From positions 126,001-190,000 of the forward strand of contig JBBHKE010001496.1 of NCBI GenBank assembly GCA_037447655.1: 64,000 nt of DNA, in the 5' to 3' direction. The stretch is from Zygnema cylindricum. Lineage: Eukaryota; Streptophyta; Zygnematophyceae; Zygnematales; Zygnemataceae. The position numbers and the translations under genes are program-made. Each line of letters begins with the position of its first letter. The stretch's first letter is position 1. The notes beneath the pieces are model-generated. The model had not been told where the DNA came from. It was given only the letters and a program-made list of their open reading frames with translations, and did no database searches. Below are positions 16,187-63,726 of the stretch, piece after piece.

Positions 16187-19100
16187 ATGGCCTCTCCTCC
16201 CAAGCCGTCCGTACGGCCGGAAAACGACAACGAAAAGGACGCCTCCTCCTCCTCCCCCCCCCGAGGATCCTCCGGGGGAGATATCTCCGAGAGGCTCCAG
16301 GACTGGCTGGATGGACGTTCTGACAGCTGGCACTTGGAGAGGAGGGAAGCCATGGAAGCCTCGTCAGCCGGACGCTCATCCGTACAATCGTCCGTACAAT
16401 CGTCTGTACGGTATTCCGTACGGAATTTGGGAGGAGATGCCTTGCGGAGGTCCTTGCGTGGGAGCTCTACGGGGAGGGAGAGAGGGGAGGGAGGGGAGGG
16501 AAGGGAAGGAGGGGAGGGAGGGGAGAGAGGGGAGGGAAGGGAGGGAAGGGAGGGAAGGGAGGGGAGGGAAGGAGGGGAGGGGAGGGAGGGAAGGGAAGGA
16601 GGGGAGGGAGGGGAAAGAGGGGAGAGAGGGGAGAGAGGGGAGAGAAGGGAGGGATGGGAGGGAGAGGAGGAGGGAGAGGGAGAGGGAGAGGAGGAGGAGC
16701 GACAGAGAAGGAGAGGGGAGAGCATGGATTTGTTGAAGGACACTCTCCTCCAGTTTTTAATCTCCGTCAGTCCGCACGTGCCGCCGCTGCCCACCCAGGT
16801 GACGTCAGCATTTTTTGTCGTTTTGTGTATTTGTCGTTTTCTGATTTGTAGTTTTGTGGGTTTTTCCGGTTTCACGATTTGGGTATGGAGAGATGAGGGG
16901 AGGGAGGAGGAGGGGGGGGAGGGGGGGGGGAGGGGGGGGAGGAAGAGGAGGGGGGGCGGAGGAGGAGGGGGGGCGGAGGAGGAGGAGAAGGGGGGGGAGG
17001 AGGGAGGGAGGGAGGAGGGGAGGGAGTGGAAGGAGGAGGGGGAAGGGAGGGAGTTGGATGGGGAGAGAGGGAGGGTGGAGAAGGGGATGAAGGAGGGAGG
17101 AGGGAGGGAGGGAAAAAAGGAGGGAGGGAGGGAGGGAGGGAGGGAAGGGAGAATGGAGGGAGGGGAGAAGGGAGGGAGGGGAGAAGGGAGGGAGGGGAGA
17201 AGGGAGGGAGGGGAGAAAGGAGGGAGGGGAGAAGGGAGGGAGGGGGGAAGGGAGGGAGGGGAGAAGGGAGAGAGGGAGGAAGGGGAGGGAAGGCAGGAAG
17301 AGAGGGGCAGAGTGGAAAGGGGACGGAGAGAGGGGGTATGGGAGTGAGAGAGTGTGGGAGAGGGTGAGAGAGGTAGAAAGGGTGAGAGAGCGAGAGTGGT
17401 AAGGGGAGAGTGGGAGGGAAATTTGGGGTTCAGTTTTTTTTTTTTTTAGTTTTTTAACCCCATTTTTAATACATTTCCTTTATGGGTCATTTTCTCCTTT
17501 GAGGAATATATCTCTTTTATCCACACTAATTCCGGTATTTCTAATGTACGGAAAAAAAGTTTTGAAATATCACATTTATTTTTACATAACTAATAATAAT
17601 AAAAAAAAAATAGCAAAAAAAACCAAACGAAAAAAATTGCTTAAATTATTTTTTCCTGGAAAACTATGATATTGTTTAATTTTTTAATATGTGAAATCGA
17701 TAAATTTGTGGTTTGGGGAAATTTCAGGATGGGTGCACATTCTTAAATTTTTGATCATAATTAAGTAAAATTTTGTACGAAAAAAGTACGAAAATTGAAA
17801 ACATCTGGTTGGTATGCGCAATAAAGCTTTTTTTTTTATTATTTATTTATTTATTTTACTTTTTGTTAACGGGAAATTCACATTTTTGGGATATATGTCT
17901 CCCAGTTTTTTAATTTTATTTAAAAAAAACATTTTTTTTTAAAAAGTTTGTTATTTGAAAATAAAAACGACGAATCAAAGCATTTTTTTTGTGTACGCCA
18001 ATAAAAAACATTAAAAGTTAATGAAAAATAACGCATTTAATACTAAAAATTAACAACATTATCAAAAAATAATAAAGATTAATAAGATAAATGAAAAATA
18101 ATAAAAATTCAACAAATAAGTAAAAATCCGTTAAAATTTTTCCAAATTGGGTGATCTGACATTTGAAGTCATTTCTGTTTTGTGGGTTTTTTATTACATT
18201 GTTTTATTTCCAATGAGACATTTGTCACGTTTTTTTAAATTGTATACTATATATTTAAATTTAGTGACAGCTGTCACATTTTAAGGTGTTTTTAATACCC
18301 CTTTAAGGTTTAAGCGTGACAGGTTGTCACGTTTCAAGATTCTATTTCTTAACTATTTTATTGTGTGACAGATTGTCACATTTAAGATGTTAAGTCTTTT
18401 TTTACTGATATAAAAAAGACTGTTTTTTTTACTTTTTCTTCTTGTGACATGTTGTCACGCTTCAAGATGTTTCTATTTTCACCCTTTTTTTTTTGTGACA
18501 CACTTACTTCGTATGCTCTGCTTTTTTTTTTACTGTTTGTTGTTTTTTTACTGATTTTTGTGACAACTTGTCACGTGTCAAGACGTTTCTTTGTTTAACC
18601 CTTTTTTTTTTGTGACGCTGTCACATTGTAAGCTGTTTTTTTTTAAATTAATCTTTAAACTTTTTTTTTTTTTACTGATTTTTTGTGACAGGTTGTCACG
18701 TTTCAAGACGTGAGTTGTACTTTGGAGGCCGAAACTCGTCCGACTGGATTCACCAATTTTGCCACTGCGGTAATTTTTTTATTTATTTTTTATTATTTTA
18801 TTTTAGTTTTATTTATTTATTTTCATTTTTAGTTTAGATATTTTTTTGTTATTGTTATTGTTAGTTTTATTATTTATATTATTATTATTGTTATTGTTGG
18901 TTTTATTTTTTATATTGTTATTGTTATTATTTTTATTGTTATTGATTCATTATTTTTTTGATTGCGTTTTTGTTATTTTTGTTATTATTATTATTATTAC
19001 TATTGCTATTATTTATGTTTTATACGCTTTTATTCACGTTTTAAATATTATATATATATTTAATTGGTGTTTCCGTTTCGCCCAATTTTGATGTTTAAAA

Positions 19101-20584
19101 GTGATAAATTTTCAATTCCTTCAAAAAAAAAAAAAGGAAAATCCTTTCAATAAAGTAGAAATACTTGTTTCCATTTTTTTTTTTTTTTGTTAAGATCTCG
19201 GTATATTAAACTTTTTTTTTTTTCTAGTTTCAAACTCTTTTTTTTGCAATAATTTTGTTGGATTTTTTTTTTTTTTTTTTTTTCCTTTTCTTTTTTTTTT
19301 TGAAATTAATAATATCCTTTTTTTTTCTTTTTTTTTTTGATCCTCCAGGGCGTGGCTTTAGTGAAATCAATTTTTCAAAAACCAAAAATCAACAAAGTTG
19401 AGATTTTGAAAAATATTACAGGGTGAGTTTCCCCTTTTATTTTTTTCTTTCTTTTTTCTAAAATACCATTTTAAATTCACCATAAGTCATAATGTTTTTT
19501 TTTAAATTGAAAAAGCTTCTTTTGGAGTTGAACCGTTCCTTCCCTTCTTTTTCCTTTTTGTTTTTTTTTCCATTTTTTTTTTTTTTTTTTTTTTAATTTC
19601 GTTAAGGGCCAGCCACGTTTGCCTGGGCTTTTTTACCAGCCACTTTTTTGTTCAAAGAATTTTTTTCCCCTCTTTTTTTTTTTTTTTCACCTTTTTTTTT
19701 TTTTTTTTTCTATGAATGTTTCCGGAAAAAACTTACACTTTTTAAGGGAATTAGTTGTCTTTTTGAAAAAAGTTTAGGATGTGGCAAATTCACACTAAAT
19801 AAAGTGTCTTCAGGAGACGAGTCAAAAAAACCTTTAAAACCCGAAATAATAAAAAAATTTAAGAAAAAATTAACGTTTCTTAAGAAATTAATATATTTTT
19901 GTGAAATAACTAACAAAAGTTGAAAAACTAACAAAAATTTCAAATTCTTCGAAATTTAGCTTTTTCTTTTTGACAATTATTTTTAGGATGTGGGAAATCC
20001 ACACTACATAAAATGGCTTCGGGTTGAGTCAACTTTCTGAAAAAATCTTAATTTTATAACTTTTTTTTTCCGAAAAAAGCAAAGTTTCAGAAATTAATAT
20101 GTTTTTAGGAAAAAACTAACAAAAGTAATTCGAAAAAATCTAACTTTTGTCTTTTTTACAATTTTTTTTAGGATGTGGGAAATCCACACTACATAAGCTG
20201 GCTTCGGGACGGGTCAAACCTTCGACCGGTTCCGTCTTCTACAACAGAATTCCGTCAAACAAAGTCAACGTCCGTAAAATCGCGGGCGTCGGTTTCCAAA
20301 CCGACAAACATTTAAGTTTTTTGACCGTAAAAGAAACTCTCCAATATTCCCGCGATTTTACAAACATTTTAGACATAAAATCGATCGAAAAAAACCCGAA
20401 ACTTCAAGAAATTTTCGAAAAAGTGGCGATGGATGGAGAGGATCCGATGCTCGAAAGTCGAATTTTAATGTTGGGATTAAAAAAATGTGAAAATATTTTA
20501 GTGGGAGACCCATTTTTAAATACAATTACACCCGATGAGAGACATCGGCTGACATCAGCGGAACTTATGGTGGGAGCCTATGGA
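16187..20584 (+). CDS. PDR/ABCG-type ABC transporter, N-terminal exons (partial gene)
   Basis: Half of the first nucleotide-binding domain of a pleiotropic-drug-resistance type ABCG exporter (plasma-membrane ATP-driven transport). Inferred exons: 16187-16798 (ATG in CCCCCCATGG; 204 codons, phase 0 donor GTGACG); 18692-18769 (VVTFQDVSCTLEAETRPTG; acceptor TGACAG); 19349-19422 (ending KINKVEILKNIT); 20172-20584 (GCGKSTLHKLASGRVKPSTG, then HLSFLTVKETLQYSRDFTN, ending LTSAELMVGAYG). These match PDR order: VRFENLSV, ILKDVSG, Walker A, the TVRETL block, the signature region. Exons 1-2-3 join in frame. Exon 3 ends phase 2 while exon 4 needs one preceding base, so a short exon carrying the KPG..TL.LGPPG part of Walker A is missing or unseen. 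The ABC signature is degenerate (TITPDERHRLT where SGGQ is usual). Exon 1 holds a long Gly/Glu/Arg stretch coded by GGGA repeats. Downstream exons were not found before the PAN-like gene, so the gene is truncated here or has a long intron. Confidence 0.7.
16480..17410. repeat. GGGA/GGAGG low-complexity tract partly inside ABCG exon 1
   Basis: Purine-rich simple sequence. The part up to about 16700 lies in the putative first exon and encodes repetitive Gly-Glu-Arg; from 16900 on it is intronic. The 474-aa open frame running to 17347 is mostly this tract read through past the splice donor at 16799. Confidence 0.8.
17410..18210. other. ABCG intron, AT-rich, no further feature
   Basis: T/A-rich intronic sequence between the first two inferred ABCG exons. 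No other gene or element recognised. Confidence 0.5.
18215..18691 (+). repeat. Reiterated splice-acceptor/exon-head unit upstream of ABCG exon 2
   Basis: Seven or eight diverged copies of T-tract + TGTGACAGGTTGTCACGTTTC + AAGA, at about 18262, 18314, 18363, 18442, 18494 (partial), 18559 and 18611, with a weak one near 18215. The real exon start at 18692 lies in the last copy. The unit centre is the inverted repeat GTGACA..TGTCAC. Confidence 0.8.
19730..20171 (+). repeat. Two decayed copies of the ABCG Walker A exon head
   Basis: TTTAGGATGTGGCAAATTC at about 19775 and TTTTAGGATGTGGGAAATCC at about 19981 repeat the acceptor and first ~40 nt of the exon at 20172, including the Walker A codons. 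The first reads CGKFTLNK and the second runs into a stop soon afterwards (GGTTGA). Between them A-rich intron sequence also repeats (GAAATTAATATgTTTTT), so the unit is about 190-205 bp. Confidence 0.8.
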
Positions 20585-20880
20585 GTGAGTATTCTCTTTC
20601 TGTGTCTCTCTCCCTCTCTCTCTTGCTCTCCCTCTCTCTCTCCCTCTCGCTCTCGCCGTTGCTCTCCCTCTCGCTCTTGCTCTCGCTCTCCCTCTCGCTC
20701 TCCCTCTCCCTTGCCCTCTCCCTCTCCCTCTTCCTCTCCCTCTCCCTCTCCCTCTCCCTCTCCCTCTCCCTCTCCCTCTCCCCCCCCCTCTCCCCCTCCC
20801 TCGCCCTCTGCCTCTCCCTCTCCCTCTCCCTCTGCCTCTGCCTCTCCCTCTCCCTCCCCCTCCCCTTCTCCCCCTTTCTG
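20585..20880. repeat. (CCCTCT)n microsatellite directly after an ABCG splice donor
   Basis: Pyrimidine hexamer repeats immediately after the GTGAGT donor; long open frames on both strands here are artefacts of the repeat. Confidence 0.9.
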
Positions 20881-21062
20881 CTTCTCTCTATACAAAACCA
20901 ATTTAAGATAGAAGGTTTAAAGTCTAAGAATTAAAATTAAAGATTTAATGTTTAAGATTGAAGCTTTAAGATTAAACTTTTAAGGGTTACGATCGACGAT
21001 AGAAGATTTGAAATTTAATAAAATTTTAAAATTAAATATTTAAGATTGAACGATGTAAAGAT

Positions 21063-21072
21063 NNNNNNNNNN
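21063..21072. other. Assembly gap (10 N)
   Basis: Ten undetermined bases, followed by another (CCCTCT)n tract to about 21250. The gap probably reflects a collapsed microsatellite of unknown true length. Confidence 0.95.
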
Positions 21073-21689
21073 CTTCCTCTCCCTCTCCCTCTCCCTCTCC
21101 CTCTTGCTCTCCCTCTCCCTCTCCCTCTCCCTCTCCCTCTCCCTCTCGCTCTCCCTCTCCCTCTCCCTCTCGCTCTCCCTCTCCCTCTCCCTCTCGCTCT
21201 CCCTCTCTCTCTCCCTCTCGCTCTCCCTCTCCCTTACTCTCTCGCTCTCCTACTCCATAATTTTCTTTGCTTCTTACTCGAAAGGTGTGAATGGAGGGGC
21301 ATCCATTTTACTTAACCACATAATTTATTTAAATAATTTAAATATTCATAACTGTAATGTGGGAAAGAAAGTATCAACAATAAAGGTATATGTTATAAGA
21401 CATGCCATTTTAAGTCCTTGATATGTTCACATCATGAAAAGAAACTCATATAAATTATTAAGTATTAGTTTTTTCCATGGATCATATATTTTTCTCCATA
21501 GATCATACATTTTTCTTGGAAAACAAAAACTCTAGAAGTAGAGATATAAAATCGATTATTTTTCCAGTTTAGAAGAAATTCAGAAGAAATACACAGATAT
21601 TTTTGGTCTAAATTAGCTTCCCTTACAACTATCGTTAACCGTCCGTACACACAAAAAAGAGTGTGAGCTACACACTTTCAAAATTTCTA

Positions 21690-21895: not shown

Positions 21896-21969
21896 CTCGG
21901 CCTCGACAAGAGTCTAAACAGTGGATACATAATTATATACATCCTCATTTTTAATACCGGTGACAACTA

Positions 21970-22417: not shown

Positions 22418-24491
22418 CTATAACTTGCACCTCACGAAGAGATCCACTCCTTCGGAAATATCCGGCGTATATCCCATGAGCTTGCTGACGAACTGACACT
22501 TGGCGTCGTCGGAGAGGGGCAACACTTTGGCGTCCTCCCAAACGGCCGCAATGCAACGGTCAGAATTGGCCGTACACGATTCCGCACATCCCGCCGCGTC
22601 GCCCGCAAAAAACGCCTCCCATACGCCTATCGGGAGGGTGCTTTTGTGGAGTTCGTATCCCGCCACCACGGCGCCGCAGCCCGCTGCAAAATAGGACGAA
22701 ATCGCCACCGTTCATTTAAGTGCATGCAAAATAGCAGATCTGGATGTAAACTGCGCGCCGCGCATATTCCGCTTCAATGAACAATTCATTAGCCGACTGC
22801 TTGTTCGTTCGTTGACGTGGCGAACTTCTAAGACTTCTAAACAAGTGCGTATCAAATGAAAAAACCGCGTATGACTAAGTGTTTGAACACGCACTTTTAT
22901 ACAAAATACGCACTTTTTTTTTTTTGACAAAGCATTTTATTGCACTACATTGTAAAATCAGGAACAGCCCCCTATACAAAAAAGTGAAAAACCCTAAGCC
23001 AGAGTTTGCAAGTGCTAGGAAGGACTTACTGTCGCACGGCGTGTAGAGGTCGACGCCAGCTGGCATGCCTGGCACAAAGCCTAGGAGCTCACTGACGAAA
23101 TGACACTTGGCGTCGTCGACGTACGGCAGCACTTTAATCTTGCCAAATGACGGCGGCGCAGCGGTACGCATTCGCAGCGCAGGACTCGGCGCAGGCGGCG
23201 GCGCTGTCGGCAAAGAACGACTCCCATTGGCCGACAGGGAATGTGTTGCTTTGCTTCTCCCATCCGGCGACTTCCCTACTGCATGCGGCTGCACATACGG
23301 ACAAAACGAAAGGGTCAGACACGTGGAACAAAGCGCATGAAGGAACTATTTTCGTACTGTGCGTTATCGTACTGTGTGTACTTAAAATCGTATAATAATT
23401 GGCCCTTTATAGTGTGGGTTAATAGTGGCTATCCGAAAGTGGGAGTTTTCTGGGGAATTCGATGCATAAATCTGGGAATTGATGCATACAGATGAACTAC
23501 CTCGATGGAGATACTAAAGAATAATGCTTCAGAGTTTCTAATTTGGGAAAAAGGGATTTTGACGGAAACTGCGAAGACCGTGAAAAAAGAAGATGTTTGA
23601 GTCCCAACTATTGGAGATAAAACAATTGGAGTCATGGTTATTGTAGTCAATTTGATTATTCCATGGACAGTGGTAAAAAATCATAAAAAACCCTAAAAAA
23701 CCCTAAAACCCTCATTAACTAAAATGTTATGCCTCCTAAAATGAATGTCAAAATTGTACCACTCTAGAACCTGCCTTAATTTTCAATGGGACACGCCAAT
23801 GTGACATTTGAAACACCTACATTTAAATTCACACCTTGGACAAAGGACACCAAAAGGTCCATATTTCCGTAATAACTTTCAGTATGCACAAATATTTACT
23901 CCTTCGATGACATTGACATTGACATTGAAACGTGACGTTTAAAGTATTACAAAATTTTATTTTTTTTGGTTTTTATGTATTGCAACAATTTCGACATATC
24001 AATGGAGGCTGATAATTTCAAAATTTGGAGATTTGCAAACTCATTATGAATGGTTATCCAATTTCCAGCATTGGTGTTGACATAGGAAGCTTTGAGTTCA
24101 TTTTAAATCAAAAAATCATTTAAATCAAAATTTTAAACCAATAAAAACAAAAAAAGTAACTTCAATTAATTGACAAATCATTCTAAATGGGTGACATTTA
24201 ACTCAACATTGATTCCACTTTTGAGACATACACCAACTATTTACTTTTTATCATCTTCTCATCGCCAATTTTGGAAACAATGTCAACAAACAAAAGAAGT
24301 TAAAAAATATTCTTCCCCGTACTTAAGTCCGTACTGAAAGTCGAGCCTGGAGCCGCCTCGGAATTCACATCCACCGATGCTGCAAGCAAATTGCCCGTCG
24401 ACAGCTGGCGAGGTCTCAATGACAGGCAGGAGCCCAGGAAGACGAAAAGGAGAGCGAAGGTGAGAGAGATGGAAGACGCTATGGAAGCCAT
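22418..24491 (-). CDS. Secreted protein with two tandem Cys-rich PAN/Apple-like exons
   Basis: Three-exon minus-strand gene. Exon 1 (24491 down to about 24323): ATG in GGCCATGGCT and a clear signal peptide (ASSISLTFALLFVFLGSCLS). Exon 2 (23288-23039) and exon 3 (22683-22418, ending TAG) are paralogous modules. Both have acceptors ending GCAG, phase 1 at both sides (exon 3 ends at the stop), and the pattern C...W/Y-E...P.G.WE.FFA..AA.CAESC.AN..RC.A..W....KVLP..DDAKC.FVS.L.G. This Cys spacing and CAESC motif resemble PAN/Apple modules, which bind protein or carbohydrate; the assignment is tentative. Exon 2 lacks two bases after the codons for AAVIWQD (near 23133) relative to exon 3. This shifts the frame, so the present sequence is either a sequencing error or a damaged copy. 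Expected location: extracellular or vacuolar. Confidence 0.68.
23650..24290. other. First intron of the PAN-like gene, no further feature
   Basis: AT-rich sequence between signal-peptide exon and first module. An ATTGACATTGACATTGA triplet repeat lies near 23909. No other feature recognised. Confidence 0.4.
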
Positions 24492-25935: not shown

Positions 25936-25942
25936 TACAGTA

Positions 25943-41653: not shown

Positions 41654-43430
41654 CCTCTCTCTCTCTGTCTCTCTCGCCTTTTCCCACTCGCGGCTCTCTC
41701 TTTCTCTCTCTTTCTTTCTCTCACAGCCCCTTTTTTCTCCTTCCTTTTTTCGCTGATTCTCATTCCTCCCTCCTATCTTCTTACTTTTCGCGTGCTTTTT
41801 CCTCATGCCTCCCACTTATTCTTCTCCCTCCACTATCCGCTCTCTTCACTTATCTCTTTTTCTTCTTATTTTTCCCTCCTTCCTCTCCTTATCGCGTTCT
41901 TACTCTCCTTATCCCTCACTCTCTCATCCCGGCTTCCCTTCTCTCCTTATCCCTGCTTTACTCATATCGCCCTCTCCTGCTCTCCTTGTATCTCCCTCCT
42001 TCCTCTCCTTATCCCTTCCTCTCTTCCGTCCTCTCCTTGTCCTCCCCTCCTCTCTCAGACCTCTTATTATTCCCCCCCTCTTTATCCCTGCCTTTTTCCT
42101 CTTCTTATCCTTCTCTCTCTCTCCTCACATATTTGCCCCTCTTTTCATATCTCCCTCCCTCTTCTCATTATATCCTCCTTCCTCTTCGCTTTCCCTCCCT
42201 CCCTCGCTGTCCTCTCCAGATGTGGCCAGTTAGCTCATGTTAATGTTTGGTCCTTATGTATTTTTATCTCTGTTTTAATATTCTTATTTTTCAATTTCTG
42301 ACCGAAAATAGCGCGTACTTTTTTTTAGTTTCCAGTAAAGAATGTGTTCATAATGATTTTGACCTTCTATTAGGGTTTTCAGGGCCTTGTCATTCGGTTT
42401 CAGGGTTTTAAGGGGTTTATCTCCGTACATTTCTTTCTGTCAAAGATATTTATTTTCTTTTTTGTCCTTTTTGTTTCTAAGACCTATTGATTAGAATTAA
42501 TCTGTTTTTATTCTTGTAACCCCTTCACATTCCGAAAGTTTTTCAGAAGAATTCAAAAGTGACCTAATAATCATTCAAAAGTATTATAGAAAGTACTATG
42601 AGAGTTTTCTAGTTGTATTCCAAGAATACTTTTTAAATGTTCATTAAGTACATCAAAAGTACTCTGAAAGTGCCCCGTGTACAAGAGTTAATAATACTAT
42701 ATGGGCGCCCCCAAATTCTAGCCATTCAAATTAAAATTTTATTGACAACACTAATTTTTTTTTTCTTAACGGTAATTTTTAAACTGTTCAGAATCGATTT
42801 TCCATTTAGAACTGATATGGTAATTACACTGTCAAAGCTTTATCCTCGTTTTCAGGGTAAATCGTATAATCCGTACAGTTTTTGCTGTAATTCTAGACAC
42901 GGTTTACCTGAAAATTGAGCGATTTTCGCTCAATATTAGGGCAATTTTACTGAATGTTACCCTATGAATTAGAACCAAAAACACTTCATATAAATTATCG
43001 CTAATAATTCTTTCCTCTAATAACAATCCACTGTGTAGTTTTTTAAGTATCTTACAAGTATTCTATAAGTACTCCAAAAGTATTTTTAACTTTAAAGTAC
43101 TCTAAATCTAGTTTAAAATTATCAAAATGTCTGCAGGAAGTACTCAAGAAGGATACCAAAAATATTCCAAATGTACTCTGTGTAGTCAAAAAGTTTTTGA
43201 TCAAGCAAATAACTTAAAGTTGGAGCCTTTATTTTATCCTCTTTGAGTTTCATTTTTTATGGATGGTTTTTTTTGATGCTCTTTTTTTATATTTTTGTTT
43301 TTATTTTTGTAATGCTCAATCGTAATTTTTACTTAATATCTATAAATTTTTGTTTTACTTCGTTAAGCTCCTCCACTATCCGCCTCGTTACCTCCCCTTC
43401 TCGCCCTTTCTAGAATCGCCAGAACTCAAG

Positions 43431-43475: not shown

Positions 43476-45016
43476 GTCAGAATCCTTATTATCTTCTTTT
43501 TCTTTCTTCTTTCAGCTCCTCACCAACCGCCTCATCACCTCCCCTCTCTCCCTTTTCAGAATTGCCAGAACTTATCCTCTTTTTTTCATTCCTTAACCCC
43601 TAATATTGTGATCTTTACTTTCTCACTTTCAGCTCCTCCACCAACCGCCTCATCACCTCCAAGGACCACGCCTCGGTGCAAATCAATGTGGGCCTAGTTG
43701 ACGACAAGGGCGTCTACACCGGCCAGTTCGCCACATTCGCACTCAGCGGATTTGTCAGGACACAGGTAAGCATCCCACTTACCCTCTCCTCTCTCTCCAC
43801 CTTCACCTGTCTCTCTCTCAACCCCCTCTCTCTCCCCCCTCCCTCTCTCTCTTCCCTCCCTCTCTCTCCCCCTCTTTCCCTCTCTCTCCCCTTCTCCCTC
43901 CCTCTCTCTCCCTGTCTTCCTCTCCCCTTTCTCCATCTCCCCTGACCTCTTCCCCTTCTCCCTCTCACCCTCTATCCCTCTGTCACTCTCTCCCTCTCTT
44001 CTCCTCTCTCTCATTCCCTCCCTTTTCTGTTTCTCCTCTTTCTTTTCTCCTTTTCTTTCATCCTTCTTTTCTTGCTCCTTCTTCCTTTCTACCTCTGCTT
44101 TCCCTCTCGTCTTTGCCTTCTCCACCGCTGTACCATCACTCTCCCTCGCCCTCGCCCTTGTCCTCTTAGTTTATATGGCTTCTCTCCCTCTCTCTGTCTC
44201 TTCCTCACGCACCTTTCTCCATTATTCTTTGTCACTCTTTCTTCTCCTTCCCTCTCACGCCCTCTTCCTCTCTCCTCTTTTTCAAATGGATTGGATGGTG
44301 AGAGATAAAGACAGCATAGGTAGAGAGAGTGTATGAGAGAGGGAGTGACATGAAACTCTAGGGGGTGGGAGTATGAGAGTGGGATATATATGGCGAGTGT
44401 GGAGGGAGGGAAAAAAGATTGGGGGAGGGAATGGGTATGGCGAACGAAATGGAAAAGAGAGAAGAAACACTTCTTTTTCTTCATTCTGTTTCTCTGTCCT
44501 CTACCCGTTCTGCTCTCTCTCCTGATTTTCTTTCCCTTCATTTTTCCAAACTTTCCTCTTTTTCTCCCCTCTCTTTTTAGGGTTTTCTAGGGCAATTTAG
44601 GGTTTTTTTAGAGGTTTTTAGGGTTGCTAGAATTGTATGGTTCTTTAAGTATTATTCGATTCATATGTTACGTTTCATCTGATGTTAGTTTTTTTACTGT
44701 AAAAAACCCTTTTCTTTCTGTGAAAGCCTTCCTTTTTTTTTATCCCCTTTCTCTCTTTTTTTCCCTCTTTTTTTGTCTTCCCTTTCCCATTTTCCTTTCT
44801 CTTTTTTGTTTTGTCTCCCCATTTCTATTTTCCCTCTGTTCTCTTTTGTGTTTTGTCTTCTCATTTCAACTTTCCCTTTCTTTTTTTATGTTTTCTCCCT
44901 TTTTCCCTTTTTTTTCTTCTCTCTTTTTTCTCTTCCCTCCCTTTTTTTTATAGGGAGACGCCGACAGTGCAGTGGACAGACTTTGGCAGAAAAAGAGGGC
45001 GGAGCTCAACCAGTAA
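41481..45016 (+). CDS. RPS21: 40S ribosomal protein S21 (eS21), complete three-exon gene
   Basis: Structural component of the small ribosomal subunit. Exons 41481-41530, 43633-43765 and 44954-45016 (TAA) give 81 residues; plant eS21 is about 82. Exon 1 starts [16 protein letters not shown], with the Cys codon split by a GTGAGT intron. Exon 2 gives [20 protein letters not shown], then [18 protein letters not shown]. Exon 3 gives [20 protein letters not shown]. Splice phases agree (2, then 0). The ATG lies in a good context (CAGCCATGG). The sequence is clearly closer to the plant form (DHASVQ.N, GDADS..DRLWQKK) than to the animal form. Intron 1 (2.1 kb) is filled with CT-rich sequence and a possible MITE end near 42960-43036; intron 2 (1.2 kb) with CT tracts. 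Two partial copies of the exon 2 head lie in intron 1. Telo-box and TATA box sit upstream. No defect seen, so probably expressed. Confidence 0.95.
41580..42230. repeat. (CT)n and polypyrimidine tract in RPS21 intron 1
   Basis: Begins ~50 bp after the donor as CTCTCT and grades into CTCCTT-rich sequence. Open frames of 250 residues over it (Ser/Leu-rich) are artefacts. Confidence 0.85.
43361..43632 (+). repeat. Two extra copies of the RPS21 exon 2 acceptor/exon head
   Basis: AGCTCCTCCACTATCCGCCT at about 43366 and CAGCTCCTCACCAACCGCCT at about 43513 precede the true CAG/CTCCTCCACCAACCGCC at 43633. The first two copies also share downstream AGAATcGCCAGAACT (43411, 43557), so the period is about 146 bp. 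The second copy keeps a usable acceptor but lacks one base. Confidence 0.9.
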
Positions 45017-46738: not shown

Positions 46739-46989
46739 TAATTTTTTCCACTTTCTATCAATGTACAGGACATCAAATTTAGATTTACCTACAGGAACTT
46801 ATAGGCTCCCAAGTTTTCCAATTTAGACAAAAAAAATTGGCAATTTTTTGGTGCCTCGTAACATTTAGGGTTATTTAAGGCTTTTTTTAAAGTATTTTAG
46901 GGTTTTTAGGGTTTTTAAGTTTTTCAAGGTTTCTCTAACAAGAGTTTCTTCTAAGCTTTCTAACAAGCTATAATTATTTATTATTGGAT

Positions 46990-47895
46990 AACATGGCAGT
47001 ACTGTGGAGGGAGGGAGGGGGGAGGGAGGAAGGAAAGGGGAGGGGGAAGGGGAGGGAGAGGGAGGGAGGGAAGGGGGGAGGGGGGGAGGAAGGGAGGGAG
47101 GGAGGGGAGGGAGAGGGAGGGAGGGAAGGGGGGAGGAAGGGGGGGAGGGAGGGGGGGAGGGAGGTAGGGAGGGGGGGGGAGGGGGAGGGAGAGGGGGAGG
47201 AGGGGGAGGGAGGGGGGGAGGGAGGGGGGGAGGGGGAGGAGGGGAGGGAGGGGGGGAGGGGAGGAGGGCAGGGATGGAGGGAGGGGAGGGAGGGGAGGGA
47301 GGGAGGGAGGGTGGGAGCGAGGGGGAGGGAGGGTGGAGGGAGGAGGGGGGGAGGGAGGGAGGGGGGGAGAGAGAGGGGGTGGGGGGGAGGGAGGGGCAGG
47401 GAGGGGGGAGGGAGGGAGGGAGGGGAGGGAGGGGGGGAGGGAGGGGGGGGGGGAGGGAGTGGGGGAGGGAGGGAGGGGGGAAGGGAAGAAGGGAGGGAGG
47501 GAGGGAAGGGAGGGAGGAAGGGAGGGAGGGAGGGAGGGGGGGAGGGAGGGAGGGGGGGAGGGATGGAGGGAGAGGGAGAGGGAGAGGGAGAAGGAGAGTT
47601 TTTCCTAAGCTTTTAAAAGCTATGACTCTATATTGCTGGATAATCTGGCAGTACTGTAGAGAGGGAAAGGAAGGGAGGGAGTGGGGGAGCGAGGGAGGGA
47701 GGGAGGGAGGGAAGTGGGGAGAGAGGGAGGGAGGGAGGGAGGGAGGGAGGGAGGGAGAGAGGGAGGGAGGGAGGGAGGAGAGAGAGGGAGGGAAAGAGGG
47801 AAGGTGGGAGGGAGGGAAAGAGGGAGGGAGGCAGGGAGGGAGGGAGGGAGGGGGGGAGGGAGAGAGGGGGGGAGTGAGGGAAGGAGAGACTAAAA
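46990..47895. repeat. (GGGA)n / (GGGAG)n purine tracts, duplicated block
   Basis: Two G-rich blocks (46990-47600 and 47655-47895). Each is preceded by a copy of TGGATAAcaTGGCAGTACTG, so the block including its unique left border was duplicated. G runs on one strand could form G-quadruplex or triplex. Frames of 210-321 residues are artefacts. Confidence 0.85.
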
Positions 47896-49095: not shown

Positions 49096-52000
49096 TTAAG
49101 AAGATTGCGTGGGAATAGCTCCGTTAAGAGCTGCCGCGAGTGCTGCCAAAACTTGCGGTCCCGAAATATCCGGAGCGAATCCTACGAAAGCCATAACGGT
49201 CGCTAATAGAGCCGAGAGACCCGATTGGACGAGCTCTCCCGAACCGACACTTGGCAGCGAATCGGTGAGCGCCGGCAAAGTCGGGAGAATCGTCGTCAGA
49301 AACGACGCCAAAGTCGTCGTCGAAGTCGCAGTCGCAATCGCACTCGCAGTCGCCGTCGCACATGTACCTACAGTCAAACGAACAAATAAAATAAAATATA
49401 TTAAAATAATAAATAATATAGTGCGAAAAATAATATAGTGCGAAATGTTCGAACGGAAAAATGACAAAAGCACCGAGGGGACGGTCGCACATGTTACCTA
49501 AAGTCAAACGAACAAATAAAATAAATATATTAAAATAATAAATAATATAGTGCGAAAAATAATATAGTGCGAAATGTTCGAACGGAAAAATGACAAAAGC
49601 ACCGAGGGGACGGTCGCACATGTTACCTAAAGTCAAACGAACAAATAGAATAAAAAAAAAGAAATAAAATAAAGTAAAATAAGATAAGAAATTATATAGT
49701 GCGAAATGTTCTAACGGAAAAATGACAAAAGCAGAGAGGACGCGGGATATTTAGTACGGCTGACCGTACGATCGAAAGTACGAGCGGTCGGTCGAGGACG
49801 AATCAAAAGGAGGCACAAAATTGAGAAAACAGACAATAAAAAAATAAAAGACACTTAGGGTAACCTTCCATCAGGCGAAAAGTGGGGTTGTTTACTGGAG
49901 AAAGTACCGTTCCGTACTAGGCCGTACTGTTTTTTTTTTTTTTTTTCAAAAGCTTTTCTAAAGCTAAAAAAGATCCTTTCCCCGTGCACACGTGTCCACT
50001 TTTCGATTGGAGGTCGCTGATCGGAAGGTGGCAATCTTACCTTTCAATCGCAACCGTCGGATTAACAATCCGATAAGTGCACGGAAAAAAAATGCAGGGT
50101 GTAAAACTGTACTGACGAAAAGACACGTGTCTATTTTGAGCTTGTGCTAAAAAAAGTCATGGTAATAAGACAAGCGAATTATAAGGGAAGAAGACAGAAA
50201 GATGTTTGTCGGTATTCAAATTTAGAATTTGATTCATTTTGACAGTACTGTACTGTACATACGAATAATCGAACGACTGTACGTTTTTCTGTACGTATTC
50301 GGATACATTTTGAGTGAGCGAAAGAAAGTACGTACGGAGTAAAAAGTCACGGTAAACAAAAATTATTATTAAAAAAAACGAAAAAAGCAGAGAGAGAGAG
50401 GGGGAGATAGAGAGGTAAAGGGAGAGAGGGAGGGAGAGGGAGGGAGGAGGGAGAGGGAGAGGGCGAGGGGCGAGGGAGAGGGCGAGGGCGAGGGAGAGGG
50501 CGAGGGAGAGGGCGGAGGGCGAGGGAGAGGGAGAGGGCGAGAGAGAGGGCGAGGGAGCGAAAGAAAGTACGTACGGAGAAAAAAGACACGGTAAACAAAA
50601 ATTATTATTAAAAAAAACGAAAAAAGCAGAGAGAGAGAGGGGGAGATAGAGAGGTAAAGGGGGAGAGGGAGGAAGAGGGAGGGAGAGGGAGGGAGAGGGA
50701 GAGGGCGAGGGAGAGGGCGAGGGAGCGAGAGCGAGGGCGAGGGAGAGGGCGGAGAGGGAGGGATAGAAAGCGGGAGAAAAAGAAAGAGAGAGTGAGAGAG
50801 AGAGAGTGAGAGACTGAGACAGAGAGACACTAACTGAGGACAAACTGACTACGGACTCGGAAACGAGGGCAGTTAATCGTACCGTCGTCCGTACAAGCGG
50901 TGGAGGACGAATTAGAAGTCGACGTCGCGCTCGACGACGTGGCGATCGCTTGGAGCGCCGCGGGAAAAGCGTTAGTGAGAGATTGGGCGAGGAGAGTGAG
51001 GTTAAAATACGGCCACCCAGAAGACGAGGGAGAGGAAGAAGAGGGAGAGGAAGAGGAGAAGAGAGGAGAAGTGGTCGACGAAGGCGTCCCTCCGAGGGAG
51101 ACGGTCCAACTTGTGTAGGAGATGGAGGCGGAGAGGGCCGAGCCGAGGGAGTCGGAGGAGGAGGATCCGAGAAGGGAGGAAGGGAAGAGGAGGCTTGGGA
51201 GAATATCGGCCGTATCGGCTTTCGAAAAGAGAGGGCCTTGGATCGCACAATCGGGATAGGTCTCGGATGTCACACAAAGGGAAAAAGCTGCATATCATAA
51301 ATGTATGGGAATTAGGTGGAGAGTCGCTTATTATTGTTCAGAACACCATATTGGTCCACAACAAAAAGTTCACTACCTTCGCATTTTATTATTTTTGTCC
51401 CATATCTTACATTTTAGTACAAACACTGATAATTATACGACATTTGTACTTATACGTGCTCCACACACAAAATTTGTAAAGCTACGTACTAGGTGGAGAG
51501 TGAGGAGAGAGGAGAGAGGAGAGAGGAGAGGGAGAGGGGAAGGGGGAAAGGGGAAAGGGGAGAGAGGAGAGAGGAGAGGGGAAAGTGAGGAAGGTAGAGG
51601 AAAAAAGAGCTGAGAATGGTGAGCAGGGAGGAAAGGGAGAAGGAGAGAAAGGACGGAGAGAAAAGTGAAATGTAAAGAGATAAAAGTACGGTTGGTTTGT
51701 GTTTTTAGGACCCTAAAAGTAACTAAAAACATTATCTTATATATTCTTCAGTATCTTAGGAATTATTTTATTGCATTAGGTGTGTTACTTACCCGGGGGG
51801 TCGGCTAAAATGTTCGCAATGGAGCCTATATCGCATGGAACCGTTCCCGCAAAGCCGTATCCGTAAGGAGAAGAAGACAAAAATGTATTTGAACACGATA
51901 ATTTTGCCAAAACTGCTCCATTTCCGTCGATTATTAGGGCATCGACAGGCAAACTATTGACAAAAGAATGACATAAAAAACAAGAAAAACGGCGTCAAAA

Positions 52001-53900: not shown

Positions 53901-53904
53901 CAAT

Positions 53905-55900: not shown

Positions 55901-55924
55901 AGCTGTTTACAAACAAATGTCACA

Positions 55925-57520
55925 TCACAATGGCAGAGACAAAAGGCAAATGTCACGTCACAGTTGCGGAGACAAAGATAAATGGCACGCCACAATAGCA
56001 GAGACAGAAGGCAAATGTGACGTCACAATAGCAGAGACAGAAGGCAAACATGATGTCAAAATAGCGAGACAGAAGGCAAATGTGACGTCAAAATAGCAGA
56101 GACAGAAGGCAAATGTGACGTCAAAATAGCAGAGACAGAAGGCAAATGTGACGTAAAAATAGCAGAGACAAAAGGCAAATGTAACGTCACAATAGCAGAG
56201 GCAGAAGGCAAATGTGACGTCACAATAGCAGAGACAGAAGGCAAATGTGACGTCACAATAGCAGAGACAGAAGGCAAATGTGATGTCACAATAGCAGAGG
56301 CAGAAGGCAAATGTGACGTCAAAATAGCAGAGACAAAAGGCAAATGTCACGTCACAATAGCAGAGGCAGAAGGCAAATGTCACGTCACAATGGCAGAGGC
56401 AGAAGGCAAATGTCACGTCACAATAGCAGAGGCAGAAGGCAAATGTGACGTCACAATAGCGAGACAGAAGGCAAATGTGACGTCAAAATAGCAGAGACAG
56501 AAGGCAAATGTCACGTCACAATAGCAGAGACAGAAGGCAAATGTGACGTCACAATAGCAGAGACAGAAGGCAAATGTGACGTCAAAATAGCAGAGACAGA
56601 AGGCAAATGTCACGTCACAATGGCAGAGGCAGAAGGCAAATGTCACGTCACAATAGCAGAGGCAGAAGGCAAATGTGACGTCACAATAGCGAGACAGAAG
56701 GCAAATGTGACGTCAAAATAGCAGAGACAGAAGGCAAATGTCACGTCACAATAGCAGAGACAGAAGGCAAATGTGACGTCAAAATAGCAGAGACAGAAGG
56801 CAATGTCACGTCACAATAGCAGAGGCAGAAGGCAAATGTAACGTCACAATAGCAGAGGCAGAAGGCAAATGTGACATCACAATAGCGAGACAGAAGGCAA
56901 ATGTGACGTCAAAATAGCAGAGACAGAAGGCAAATGTCACGTCACAATAGCAGAGACAGAAGGCAAATGTGACGTCACAATAGCAGAGACAGAAGGCAAA
57001 TGTGACGTCAAAATAGCAGAGACAGAAGGCAAATGTCACGTCACAATGGCAGAGGCAGAAGGCAAATGTCACGTCACAATAGCAGAGGCAGAAGGCAAAT
57101 GTGACGTCACAATAGCAGAGACAGAAGGCAAATGTGACGTCAAAATAGCAGAGACAGAAGGCAAATGTCACGTCACAATAGCAGAGACAGAAGGCAAATG
57201 TGACGTCAAAATAGCAGAGACAGAAGGCAATGTCACGTCACAATAGCAGAGGCAGAAGGCAAATGTAACGTCACAATAGCAGAGGCAGAAGGCAAATGTG
57301 ACGTCAAAATAGCAGAGACAGAAGGCAAATGTGACATCACAATAGCGAGACAGAAGGCAAATGTGACGTCACAATAGCAGAGACAGAAGGCAAATGTCAC
57401 GTCACAATAGCAGAGACAGAAGGCAAATGTGACGTCACAATAGCAGAGGCAGAAGGCAAATGTGACGTCACAATAACAGAGACAGAAGGCAAATGTGACA
57501 TCACAATAGCAGAGACAAAT
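55925..57520. repeat. 33-bp tandem array with TGACGTCA, ~48 copies
   Basis: Unit GCAGAGACAGAAGGCAAATG + TGACGTCACAATA. Most copies hold the perfect palindrome TGACGTCA (bZIP/CRE core) or the variants GTCACGTCAC and GTGACGTCAAAA. Variants alternate in higher-order blocks: the order of CACAATA, AAAATA and TCACGTCAC types near 56450-56600 recurs near 56680-56800 and 56890-57040. Some units are one to three bases short (for example GCGAGACAG). Because the unit is a multiple of three, both strands stay open, but indels break every frame, so it is not a gene. Copies beginning AAACAAATGTCACATCAC at 55912 mark the edge. Confidence 0.92.
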
Positions 57521-57599
57521 ATCGCCTTTCAAACCAACCAGGCGAGCTGCTTCCAGTCAGGTCATTACCAGCAAACCTTCGCCGGAGATTAGGGTTGAC

Positions 57600-58690: not shown

Positions 58691-58691
58691 T

Positions 58692-59173
58692 CATAGTTGT
58701 TCAAATCGTGCGATTTTTTCCTTTTTTCCGATTAAAACGTATAATTCGTGACTTTTGAATAAATCGGAAAAAAACGCGATGTACTTTCTGTCCGGTAAAC
58801 TGAACGGCTAATTCACGGAAACTGTACGTCATTTTACGATAACTGTACGGTTTTGTACGGTAAGTGTACGGAATTTGACGAAAAGATACGTTGCACTTCG
58901 TAGTACTTTCTGTCCGGTAAACTGAACAGAAATTTTACGAGAATGTACGAAATTGTACCAAAAATGTACGGACTATTACGAAAAGATACGGAAAATGTAC
59001 GAAGAAGGTACAAACTGCGGTATATGTGAAATCTATTTTTGTTTACATGTACGGAATAGTACGGACGAAAATTCATTAACGATTTTTACGATTTTTTCAG
59101 AAGGTTCAATGCGTTTGTTACGTATAATTCGTCACGATTAAATCGCTCGCACTAAACGCCGTGAACAACTATG
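58692..59173. mobile_element. hAT-like element family I, copy I3, intact ends
   Basis: CATAGTTGTTCA at the left and TGAACAACTATG at the right, with a perfect 8-bp duplication ATTCAAAT at 58684-58691 and 59174-59181. The interior repeats GTACGGAAT/GTACGAAA. Non-coding. Confidence 0.88.
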
Positions 59174-59778
59174 ATTCAAATACATTTCGTACGGCGATGT
59201 ACAGTACAGTACAGTCTGTACTCTGTAGTCACTAAAGTAAGACCGATTTTAATACGGTTCAGTGCAATATAGTCAAGACGTTAGTGCAGGAGCAGCTCCA
59301 TGGAGAGGAAGTCTCTACCTCTCCCTCTCCCTCTCCCTCTCCCTCTCCCTCTCCCTCCCCCACCCTCACCTGATTCCCACAGACATCACTAAATTTTTAC
59401 CCTATGATAAGATTCATTTTGAATTTCAAATGACTGGATGATTTTTGGTCTTTTGGTTCCTTTTTCTCCAGAAATGTGCTTAGTAAGACTTATTTTGTTA
59501 GAAGTACCACCAATCTCTAGAAAAAAAATTACATTTTTTTTCAGAATCAATCAAAAGAAAGAGAAATAAGTCTCCTAAGTTTAGTTTTAAATTATTTTTA
59601 TGCTCTTCTTTCTTTCAAAAATAACATTTTACAAGTCAAATGGGGTGGAATGTGGAAATCTACCACCAAAAATAACCTTTATTTCAAGCGTGTTGCTCAT
59701 TTATTTTCCAATTCAAGTTATTATCGACTTCATAATCAAAGGTTGTTTTCCAATTTTTCACGCAAAGAAACGGATAAA

Positions 59779-62700
59779 ATGTTTGCTCAAAAACTAAATC
59801 CTGTCAATGGCGCCATGGAATGGGTTGTTGTTGACCTGAAAGAAGAAATTCAAGAAGAAAAATTACATACTTGTAATTTCAATAATCCCGATTCGGGTAA
59901 TAATTCCAATTTGGATAATTCAAATTTGGATAATCACAATTCAAATAATTCCAATTTGGATAGGTCCCATTTGAACAATGTCCACACTAAAGACAAGGTC
60001 ACGTCAAAGTCCATGTACAAAGCCACGTGTCAAGCAACCAATGGTCTTCTCGACGCCATCGTGACATCGTCCTATTTGGACATGTTGAATGATGATTTGA
60101 GAAATCAACTTTATGTGAAGGCCATTGAGAAGGTGGTAAAAGAGGGCGACCATGTGCTTGACATAGGGTAAGCGCAACCTTTGTCCTATTGGGAAGGGCA
60201 AATTAGTGTGGATTTGTGCTATTAGAAAGGGCATATTATGTGCGATTTTTTGCTGTTCCAAAGAGAAAATTAAGCCCAAATTTTGTCCTATTATAGATGG
60301 TAGATTAGTGTAGATTTGTCCTATTATAAAGTACAAAGTAAAGTTTAATATGTCGGATTATAAAAGTAGATATTTGTGGATTTGTCCTATTGTAAAGGGC
60401 AAATTAAGCTCAAATATTCTCCTATTTTAAAGAGCAAATTAGTGTGGAATTGTCCTTTTGTGAAGGGGAAACTAAGCTCAAATTTTGTCCTATTTTAAAG
60501 GGCAGTCTATTAAATTGACTTAATTCATAATATTTTGGACTATATCTTATGGGATGTTACAATGGAGTATTTAGATGACATTTGCTAAAGAAAATAGAAA
60601 AAAGTATGAAAAAATTTCCTGACATTCTAACATTTTCATCTTGCATTTTTCTTATAGCCATTGCTAATTGTGGCTCGTTTCATGACTTTTCAAATAAATA
60701 TTTTTTCTAAAATATTTTCAACTGTATGCATCCATTTTTTTTTTTAATCCAACTCATGTCGTTTTATTGTAGCGTGAATTTTATCAGACCCGTTTAAAAA
60801 TGATATTAGTACCCAATTATCTATGACCCATTTCAACTTGTCCTCCAAAAAGATATAATTGAAGTTAGTACCCAATTATTTCCTCCCTTAAATTTTGCCA
60901 TTTATTATCAATGGCCCATTTCAACATTTCCTCCAAACAAATATAATTGATGTTAGTACCCATTTATCCATGACCCGTTTCAACTTTTCCTCGAGAAAAT
61001 CAAAAACGATATTAGTACCCAATTATAACGTTTCCTCCAAACAAAAAAAATACAATTGATATTAGTACCGTATTATGACATTCCCTCCAAAACATGCTAT
61101 TGAAATTAGTACCCGATTATATTCCTATTTTTTTTTTCCGCAGATCTGGCACAGGATTGCTTGCGATGATTTCCCAAAGAGCTTTGGAAAAAATTTCAAT
61201 TCAAAAAAACGATTATAATGCCGGAATTTCGAATATCGATTCAAATAAAAACCTATCTTTATCTTCTCAAAAAGGATTTACTGATTCCGGTTTTAATACT
61301 ACCGAGATTTCGGAGATAAATTCAAATAAAAACGTCTCTTTATCGTCTCAAAAAGGATTTTCCGATTCCGGCTTTGTCACGACATGTGAAAGTTTTCCAC
61401 CAATGGCTCGTCTCGCCCAACAAATTATCGAAAAAAATGGGATGAGTTCCTCAATAAATCTCGTAAAAAAAAGATCTGATGAAATGGAAGTTGGAGAAGG
61501 AAAAGATTTGCCGCAAAAAGTTGATGTATTGGTGAGGATTTTACGGACCTTTTTCTTTCTATAGTGAGAAAAATCCTTGTTTTTTAAGGAAAAAACATTT
61601 TTTTGGTGAGGAAAATTCTTATTTTTTTGGGAGGAAATTGTTGTGTTTGCTAGAAATTTTGTGTTTGCTAGAAATTTTGTGTTTGTGAGAAAAACCCTTG
61701 TTAATGTGAGAAATATCCTTGTTTTTGTGAGTAACATCCTTGCTTTTGTGAAAAAAAAATGTTTTTGTGAAGAAATTCCTTGTTTGCTGAAAAATATCCT
61801 TGCTTTCGTGAAGAAAATCCTTCTTTTTGTGAAGAAAATCCTTGCTTCTGTGAAGAAATTCCTTGTTTTTTTGAAGATTTTTTTTGTTTTTGTGGAGAAA
61901 CTCCTTGTTTTTTGTGAGAAAAGTTCATTAACATTTTTCCAATGTCGTGAAATTTATTTTGAATGTACAAAAATATTTTTTTGCAAAATAATGACTTTTT
62001 ACACAATTTTGAAGTCTGTCGGTCTTCCGGTGTTTATAAAAAATATATTTTCAGCGTTTATTTGTTATTTTTTTCTGCTTCGTCCTTCTCTTTTCCTTTT
62101 TTTTTCTTTTTCCTTGTTTTTGTTTTTGGGTAGGTGACTGCGTTTCTGGGAAAAATCTCGGGCAGGTTTTGAAAAAAAATCTTCAAGCTTTTTCATTTTT
62201 TTTTTATTGTCGATGTTTTCGATTAATACATGTGGACTTCGATACAGTATTCGTTCGCTTTCTGTGCTTCTTCTTTCGTTTTTCTTTTTTTGTTTTCCTC
62301 TTTCTTTTTTTTTTTTTTTTTTTGGGTGGGTGAACTTGATGTTACTATGGGAAAAATCTCAGGCTGGTACCGAAAACTTTGGATCCGGAACTTTTGAATG
62401 AAGGGCTTTTTTTCTTTCTTTTTTCTTTGCATTCCTTTTTTTTATGTCCCCCCTCCCCTTTTTTCTTTTTTCTTTGTATTCCTTTTTTTTATTTCCCCCC
62501 TCCCCTTTTTTCTTTTTTCTTTGTATTCCTTTTTTTTATTTCCCCCCTCCCCTTTTTTCTTTTTTCTTTGTATTCCTTTTTTTTATTTCCCCCCTCCCCT
62601 TTTTTTTTTATTCCTTCTTTTTCCTAACATGATGCTTTTGTGGAAAGTTTTGGGCAGGTATCAGAAATTTTGTATTCGTAGCTTATGCGTGAAAGGCCTT

Positions 62701-63726
62701 ACCTTTTTTTTTTTTTCTTCCCTTTTTTTTTTTGTTCCTCCTTTATTTCTTTTTCTCCTTCTTATTCTTTTTCTCCTTCTTATTATTTTTCTCCTTTTTA
62801 TTCTTGTTCTTCCTTTTTTTCTTTTTCTTCCTTTTTTTCTCTTTTTTATTTCGGGCAGGTATCAGAAATTTTGGATTCAGAACTTTTGGGGGAAGGACTT
62901 TTACCGACTCTCCGTCACAGTCACGCTCACCTTTTGAGGGAGGGAGGGAGAGTAGTTCCTTTCAAAGCCACAGTTTTTGCTCAGGTGTTTTTAATTTCTT
63001 TTTCTTTTTCTTTTTCTTTTTCTTCTTTTTTTTCTTTTTCTTTTTCTTTTTCTTTTTCTTTTTCTACTTCTTTTTCTTTACATTTATAAATAATCATATC
63101 CCATGTGATTTTTTTTTCAAACATAAAGAGATCTTCATATTTGTTATTTCTATTTCATTTCTTATTCCCTTTCCCTTTCTTTTTCTCTTTCCCCTCCTTC
63201 CTCTCCCTCCCTCCCTCCTCCCTCCCTCTCCCCCTCCCCTCCCCCTCCCCTCCCTCCCCCTCCTCCCTCTCCCTCCCTCCCTCCATCTACCCCCTCCTTC
63301 CTCCACATTCTCCAGTTTTTGTCTTTCCACCTTGGGTCTTCCATTCTCCATTCAGCCTGTCATTGAACAGTCTCAGAGATCACCTAAATTCCCTCCTCTC
63401 TCTCTCTCCCTCCCTCTCCCTCCTCCTCCCTCCCTCCCTCCCTCCCTCCCTCCCTCCCTCCCTCGCCAAGAAAAAAATATTATTGTCAGTCAAGTGATCC
63501 TTTTGAGGTATTAACTTTCGTATCACAGTTTTCACTTTTTTTTTTTCTTTTTCTTTTTTTTTTCTGTTTGTCCTTGTTTTTAAGCTTTTTCTTGTTTCTT
63601 TTTTCAGTTAAGTGATCCTTTTGAGGTTTTCACATTCGAGTTTTCGGCTCCTCCAATCGGAGACCGGAAAATTGAAAAAAAAATAATCGCAACCGAAACC
63701 GGTAAAGCTCACGCAATTGTTTCCTG
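59779..63726 (+). CDS. PRMT7: PRMT7-like protein arginine N-methyltransferase, 5' half (continues beyond window)
   Basis: SAM-dependent arginine methyltransferase. Exons: 59779-60167 (MFAQKLNPVNGAMEWVVVD, an Asn-rich insert, then SYLDMLNDDLRNQLY and HVLDIG); 61144-61531 (SGTGLLAMISQRA, then FPPMARLAQQIIEKNG, ending VDVL); 62859-62984 (VSEILDSELLGEGLLPTLRH, then HAHLLREGGRVVPFKATVFAQ); 63608-63726 (LSDPFEVFTFEFSAPPIGD, ending GKAHAIVSW). All joins I could test agree in phase (2, then 0; the last exon ends TG before GTAAAC, completing Trp). Motif I is split by intron 1; exon 3 is the double-E loop with both Glu residues. Exon 4 fits the plant segment LSEP.K.FEFDF..GSVHAVISWW. About 60 residues expected between exons 3 and 4 were not found, so an exon at 62985-63607 may be missed or lost. 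A 27-residue duplicated insert lies between motif I and the acidic post-I segment. The frame is open upstream of the ATG to 59650. Confidence 0.85.
60168..60510 (+). repeat. Minisatellite at the 5' end of PRMT7 intron 1
   Basis: Starting at the donor, about six to seven copies of TTTGTCCTATTgtAAAGGGC plus AAATTAGTGTGGA. The first copy overlaps the sequence adjoining the splice site. Confidence 0.75.
60785..61125 (+). repeat. Tandem ~60-bp repeats near the 3' end of PRMT7 intron 1
   Basis: ATATTAGTACCCAATTATC, then GACCCATTTCAACttTTCCTCCAAA, recurs about five times up to the acceptor at 61143; the last T-tract lies right after a copy. Confidence 0.8.
61532..61935 (+). repeat. Donor-like minisatellite filling the start of PRMT7 intron 2
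   Basis: From the donor GTGAGGATTTTA onward, about 14 copies of GTGAgaAAAATCCTTGTTTTT. Many units keep a GTGAG/GTGAA that resembles a 5' splice site. Confidence 0.8.
62130..62858 (+). repeat. Three upstream copies of the PRMT7 exon 3 acceptor/exon head
   Basis: GGGCAGGTTTTGAAAAA (62151), GGCTGGTACCGAAAACTTTG then GATCCGGAACTTTTG (62362), and GGGCAGGTATCAGAAATTTT then GTATTCGTAG (62652) precede the real GGGCAGGTATCAGAAATTTT at 62854. Upstream intron sequence (GGGAAAAATCTCGGGCAGG type) is duplicated with them. The copy at 62652 keeps the AG and the first 21 exon bases. Confidence 0.9.
62447..62610. repeat. Tandem ~49-bp repeat CCCCTTTTTTCTTTTTTC
   Basis: Four near-identical units of CCCCTCCCCTTTTTTCTTTT plus CTTTGTATTCC, between the second and third exon-3-head copies. 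Confidence 0.85.
63484..63525 (+). repeat. Upstream copy of the PRMT7 exon 4 acceptor/exon head
   Basis: GTCAGTCAAGTGATCCTTTT then GAGGTATT repeats the real TTCAGTTAAGTGATCCTTTT then GAGGTTTT at 63602. It still has AG in place; use would shift to a different downstream sequence. Confidence 0.9.

What the first reader, a model, noticed from the sequence alone, without database searches (positions are those of the whole stretch)
18215..63607. Splice-acceptor plus exon-head reiteration in introns of four unrelated genes
Six cases share one pattern: ABCG exon 2 (about 8 extra copies), ABCG exon 4 (2), RPS21 exon 2 (2), unknown minus-strand gene exon D (2), PRMT7 exon 3 (3), PRMT7 exon 4 (1). Each extra copy contains intron 3' end, AG and the first ~15-50 exon bases, lies upstream of the real exon in the same intron, in the same orientation, and decays with distance. 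Simple tandem duplication would produce single cases; seeing it in nearly every gene here suggests a genome-wide process (polypyrimidine-primed duplication, template switching, or partial re-integration of spliced/lariat products). It would lengthen introns and seed decoy acceptors. I know of no described system with this signature.
Basis: partly seen in the sequence, partly recalled or inferred. Interest (0 to 1): 0.9.

Follow-up and report, generated by a model that had tools for sequence, protein, structure and literature searches.

The report
Tandem repeats across intron-exon boundaries
In several genes of this green-lineage genome, short stretches that straddle an intron-exon border have been copied head to tail into the intron; this is a known kind of repeat, described in amphioxus under the name "mirages".

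Summary
The copies are real. All six acceptor cases score 64-122 against their own intron; 658 control alignments (reverse complement, other introns, shuffles, wrong-side introns) reach at most 57. They are tandem arrays: in 9 of 10 comparisons of successive whole units, units align end to end above 200 shuffles.

The claimed acceptor-only signature does not hold. The next gene found on the contig, a BSK-like kinase outside the window (L014+L031), carries strong copies at two donors and one acceptor, plus two borderline cases. Over 45 acceptors and 45 donors the count is 7 against 2 at score 60 or more, Fisher p = 0.16. Two chaperonin genes on other contigs have none at 42 boundaries; their introns hold little low-complexity sequence. 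So it is recurrent but not universal.

[quoted passage not shown] One boundary-crossing duplication is known in potato (PMC4974935, abstract). New, as far as my searches reach, are repeated arrays of this kind in a green-lineage genome: 9 of 48 boundaries in five genes on one contig.

The parts
18260..18711 (+). Tandem array upstream of and into the presumed ABCG exon 2 (acceptor taken at 18691/18692): six copies of a GTGACA..TGTCAC motif plus the last one at the exon
   Evidence: TRF 117-bp unit; unit-to-unit 82 and 85%
19755..19826 (+). Far copy of ABCG exon 4 (Walker A exon) acceptor + 47 nt of exon head
19960..20032 (+). Near copy of ABCG exon 4 acceptor + 46 nt of exon head
   Evidence: units align end to end, 144/176 (alignment shown); found as a second match by a whole-genome DNA search
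20172..20584 (+). Real ABCG exon 4 (ABC_tran, GCGKST...)
   Evidence: translation of 20144-20560: Pfam PF00005 E 1.2e-07; ABCG25 in PDB E 3.8e-05
43363..43395 (+). Far copy of RPS21 exon 2 head (28 nt)
43498..43542 (+). Near copy of RPS21 exon 2 acceptor + 27 nt
43633..43765 (+). Real RPS21 exon 2
   Evidence: model translates to full eS21; 482 homologues, best full-cover identity 80% among the 120 listed
62366..62410 (+). Copy of PRMT7 exon 3 head (AG lost)
62648..62700 (+). Copy of PRMT7 exon 3 acceptor + head
62859..62984 (+). Real PRMT7 exon 3
   Evidence: in-frame model; PRMT7 4c4a E 6.8e-41 for the joined exons
63483..63520 (+). Copy of PRMT7 exon 4 acceptor + about 32 nt
63608..63726 (+). 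Real PRMT7 exon 4
49355..49733 (-). 129-bp tandem array (2.9 units) running into the head of an exon of an unnamed minus-strand gene; about 13 nt of exon
   Evidence: TRF; no Pfam match for the gene

Best explanation
[quoted passage not shown] A segment of roughly 75-210 bp (up to 290 in PRMT7 exon 3) straddling a splice site is duplicated head to tail, probably by replication slippage or unequal exchange in introns rich in low-complexity pyrimidine tracts. Because the splice site joined to the full exon still works, the extra copy becomes intron and is tolerated. It then decays neutrally while the exon-bearing unit may duplicate again, so the copy nearest the exon looks youngest. Shown here: the copies, their tandem order, their excess over controls, and their presence at acceptors and donors. 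Inferred: the mutational step, tolerance by splicing, neutrality.
For: Six window cases above all 658 controls. Whole units align end to end in ABCG4 82%, RPS21 80%, minus gene 99%, ABCG2 82 and 85%, kinase acceptor 5 82 and 80%, kinase acceptor 7 86%, and the last pair of PRMT7 exon 3 82%. Degenerate tandem arrays also occur inside introns with no exon part (11 of 22 families) and elsewhere in the window and the genome sample. Donor-type copies in the kinase gene: 40/44 and 39/45 identical. Affected genes have introns with a median 36-58% low-complexity sequence against 3 and 6% in two unaffected genes; boundaries with copies 9 of 48 against 0 of 42, p = 0.003. Mirages have the same anatomy: both boundaries, units 10-160 bp, 81-100% identity in the globin case.
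Against: For PRMT7 exon 4 only the boundary itself matches; the rest of the unit does not (score -44, shuffle maximum -25), and the PRMT7 exon 3 far unit is not above shuffles. No RNA data: that the upstream sites are unused is assumed. All five affected genes lie on one contig, and four were chosen because they show the pattern.
Confidence: 0.85

Rival explanations
1. Acceptor-specific duplication, driven by the polypyrimidine tract (template switching at the tract, with the breakpoint a few tens of nt into the exon).
For: The exon part is short there (13-47 nt). In RPS21 and PRMT7 exon 3 the copied exon head is followed at once by a pyrimidine run (by eye). Before the kinase gene was added, 6 of 11 tandem families in 39 introns reached an acceptor and none a donor, 0.76 expected each.
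Against: The kinase gene has donor copies at two strong and one borderline site of 7. Over all genes 7 of 45 against 2 of 45, p = 0.16. Pyrimidine runs also start just behind several donors (by eye).
Confidence: 0.12
2. Re-insertion of spliced or lariat RNA by reverse transcription near the gene's own acceptor.
For: Copies are in the same orientation and near the parent exon.
Against: Copies carry unspliced intron tail and exon head; units align end to end as tandem repeats; no acceptor stretch matched an intron other than its own above score 42 (225 random pairings, five per acceptor).
Confidence: 0.01
3. Assembly artefact.
For: Long low-complexity introns are hard to assemble; one 5-kb N run lies close by.
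Against: Exon heads of five of six measured copies differ from the real one by 11-24%, which misassembly of one locus does not give. The RPS21 near copy (27/27 with one gap) and the 99% identical minus-strand units are less safe from this objection.
Confidence: 0.02

Closest known systems
Mirage minisatellites of amphioxus (Adh3, globin genes BflGb6 and BflGb9)
   Same: Tandem repeats spanning an intron-exon boundary; 5' or 3' boundary; unit of about 10-160 bp; 81-100% identity in BflGb6; decoy AG/GT in many units (PMC3087553, passages read; the 2002 Adh3 paper PMC117041 was not held, and I saw only its citation)
   Different: Green-lineage genome instead of a cephalochordate; mostly more diverged arrays, units up to about 210 bp and in one case 290; no haplotype or RNA evidence here
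Tandem genomic duplication crossing intron 1/exon 2 of a potato RdRp gene, which made a new intron
   Same: A duplicated segment crosses an intron-exon boundary in a plant (PMC4974935, abstract read)
   Different: Single event that created a new intron; here the copies appear to stay inside the old intron
Intron gain by tandem duplication of AG/GT proto-splice sites (Drosophila survey)
   Same: Same mutational step (PMC2891723, passages read)
   Different: There the duplicated piece is coding sequence that turns into an intron

Membership tests
Mirage minisatellites | Repeat unit spans an intron-exon boundary | tested here: met
Mirage minisatellites | Units lie head to tail (minisatellite-like) | tested here: met
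   9 of 10 whole-unit comparisons above 200 shuffles; exception PRMT7 exon 3 far unit. Single duplications: the unit comparison is above shuffles at two kinase donors, not at PRMT7 exon 4
Mirage minisatellites | Either exon end can be affected | tested here: met
   donors of the kinase gene in L014+L031; not seen in the window itself
Mirage minisatellites | Unit number differs between haplotypes (instability) | not tested
   A DNA search of the ABCG exon gave only this contig; no such search was sent for the other loci
Mirage minisatellites | Normal splicing is not disturbed | not testable with these tools
   no RNA data
Re-integrated spliced or lariat RNA | Copy lacks the tandem unit or carries a spliced junction | tested here: not met
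   for the multi-copy arrays

The most novel reading that the evidence does not exclude
In this green-lineage genome, mirage-type boundary duplication is a genome-wide engine of intron growth in genes with low-complexity introns. It would leave one in several splice sites flanked by decaying decoy sites that the spliceosome reliably ignores, with a real excess at acceptors.
Probability: 0.3. Interest if true: 0.6.

Novelty: new member of a known kind. Interest (0 to 1): 0.4.

Why it matters
Boundary-spanning tandem repeats are natural duplicated-splice-site experiments: each could show which of several similar sites the cell still uses. A genome dense in them would allow a statistical test of how exon context chooses splice sites, and of tandem duplication as a source of intron length and new introns. 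It also warns gene predictors, since the copies are plausible false acceptors and donors.

Tried and rejected
Unmasked alignment scoring gave many poly-T and CT matches; masked scoring replaced it. A first set of unit alignments overlapped itself and was uninformative except for one ABCG pair. The tRNA scan of the window and the Rfam scan of window and L003-L009 found nothing. I first took the acceptor bias as real (5 of 38 against 0 of 38); the kinase gene ended that. Lariat re-insertion was rejected because of tandem unit order. Genome-wide sampling of further gene families was not possible: PF00118 and PF00227 were answered; PF01602, PF00493 and PF00012 never were.

Known weaknesses: some exon borders of the CCT gamma and minus-strand models are off frame, and the first minus-strand exon may not belong. 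One GC-type donor in PRMT7 was placed by eye. The last two PRMT7 exons are tentative: a stop lies in the exon at L007:3581. These touch denominators; only the minus-strand array, whose exon overlap is 13 nt, touches a count at score 60 or more. The first ABCG intron has no known upstream exon and was started at window 17901. Three of my waits between calls were scripts that only slept and printed (54, 67, 87), as was 91; 46 and 81 also slept.

Full report
Setting. The window is contig C1120, 126001-190000, of a 353-Mb assembly in 2689 contigs. RPS21 matches green-plant eS21 proteins best; among the 120 of 482 hits listed, none covering the whole query is more than 80% identical. The source is thus a green-lineage organism without close relatives among those hits; streptophyte alga is my inference and I did not identify the species. 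For comparison, the 442-Mb Mesostigma viride genome has a mean intron length of 1142 bp, with repeats filling 30% of intron space (PMC6947507, passages read).

Observation. Local alignment of each acceptor (30 nt of intron, 60 nt of exon) to its own intron finds the copies reported, the best hit above the maximum of 100 shuffles in the five plus-strand cases; the acceptor at 61145 gave none. Searching ten exons of the three plus-strand genes against up to 4 kb on either side, both strands, every non-simple match is upstream, same strand and begins at exon position 0 or 1. A masked score, in which low-complexity bases count nothing, removes poly-pyrimidine matches.

Are they tandem duplications? 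Mostly yes. Intervals between successive copies align end to end with the next interval: ABCG exon 4 144/176, RPS21 93/116, minus gene 128/129, ABCG exon 2 86/105 and 97/114, all above 200 shuffles. PRMT7 exon 3 is mixed: its last pair is just above shuffles (111 against 98), its first pair is not (24 against 35). PRMT7 exon 4 is a single duplication whose similarity is confined to the boundary. Unit lengths are 117-209 bp, with 201-290 bp in PRMT7 exon 3. In the three arrays measured the copy nearest the exon is the closest to it.

Is it acceptor-specific? These genes were picked for the pattern, so I looked for independent ones. On the same contig, about 38 kb beyond the window's end (L014 and L031), lies a kinase gene; its joined exons match Arabidopsis At5g41260 (4i92) at E 4.1e-57 and PF07714 at 1.1e-22; that this is a BSK kinase is recalled. 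It has an acceptor array at its last read exon (98 and 69, two copies), a borderline acceptor copy (52), two strong donor copies (108 and 112: 40/44 and 39/45 identical, 35 and 45 nt of exon) and one borderline donor copy (53). A further array upstream of exon 5, three copies by eye, aligns unit to unit at 80-82%, though its boundary did not reach the score. The borderline scores are within reach of chance, since the control maximum is 57. Pooled over 45 acceptors and 45 donors: 7 and 2 at score 60 or more, 8 and 3 at 50 or more; p = 0.16 and 0.20. At score 50 two of the 658 controls also pass, both donor controls (50 and 57).

Is it genome-wide? Not shown. Two CCT genes on other contigs (L029, in frame throughout; L030, partly off frame) give 0 of 21 acceptors, 0 of 21 donors and no tandem family. 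Their introns have a median of 3 and 6% low-complexity sequence, against 36-58% in the five affected genes. Boundaries with copies: 9 of 48 against 0 of 42, p = 0.003. Gene and contig are confounded here. Further families could not be sampled.

Is the position on boundaries more than chance? Among 22 tandem families in 46 introns, 8 reach an acceptor and 3 a donor with at least 12 exon nt; random placement expects 1.49 and 1.77 (P = 0.00005 and 0.26; both together 0.0001). In the kinase gene alone 5 of 10 families touch a boundary, 1.59 expected, P = 0.011; two of the five are the borderline ones. Boundaries may be over-represented partly because exon sequence is easier to recognise than low-complexity intron.

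What is known. [quoted passage not shown] Potato RdRp shows one such duplication in a land plant, there making a new intron (PMC4974935, abstract). Of my searches of the open-access library (listings only) just paired mirages with algae; its six hits include no such report by title and abstract start. The library lacks most subscription journals.

Mechanism. Most likely slippage or unequal exchange in unstable, pyrimidine-rich introns duplicates a boundary-spanning piece. The site joined to the full exon is still recognised, so the other copies become intron and decay. That short exon fragments compete poorly with a full exon is recalled from duplicated-splice-site experiments and comes from no call. 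The tools here show anatomy only.

Verdict. A real and recurrent feature, correctly spotted, but of a known kind; the lineage and the number of cases on one contig are the new part.

Noticed in passing
window 61532-61900: The PRMT7 intron behind the second exon starts with a degenerate array of GTGAG-containing units, i.e. repeats of the intron head without exon sequence (by eye; family).
   Followed up: partly
L007:2498 and L007:2616: By eye a further diverged copy of a PRMT7 exon head about 115 bp upstream of the real one; it did not reach the score threshold.
   Followed up: partly
window 22438-22640 and 23045-23245, minus strand: Two similar stretches 607 bp apart; by eye open frames with cysteines, perhaps a tandemly duplicated exon.
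   Followed up: no
window 55914-57517: 33-bp satellite, about 49 copies, 92% matches.
   Followed up: no
window 46951-47002 and 47605-47654, minus strand: Two copies of a pyrimidine-tract + ACAG|TACTGCCA... stretch that look like acceptors, with no exon recognised.
   Followed up: no
L009:7370-7757 and L014:2367-2754: The same 193-bp tandem pair, by its first 110 letters, occurs at two places of contig C1120.
   Followed up: no
G000 C2488/C315, C1878/C2437, C408/C2343, C2165/C1411: Chaperonin and proteasome matches with identical or near-identical scores on two contigs; possibly uncollapsed haplotypes that could show unit-number differences.
   Followed up: no
L007:7401 to L008:2400: A run of about 5 kb of N behind the PRMT7 gene.
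   Followed up: no
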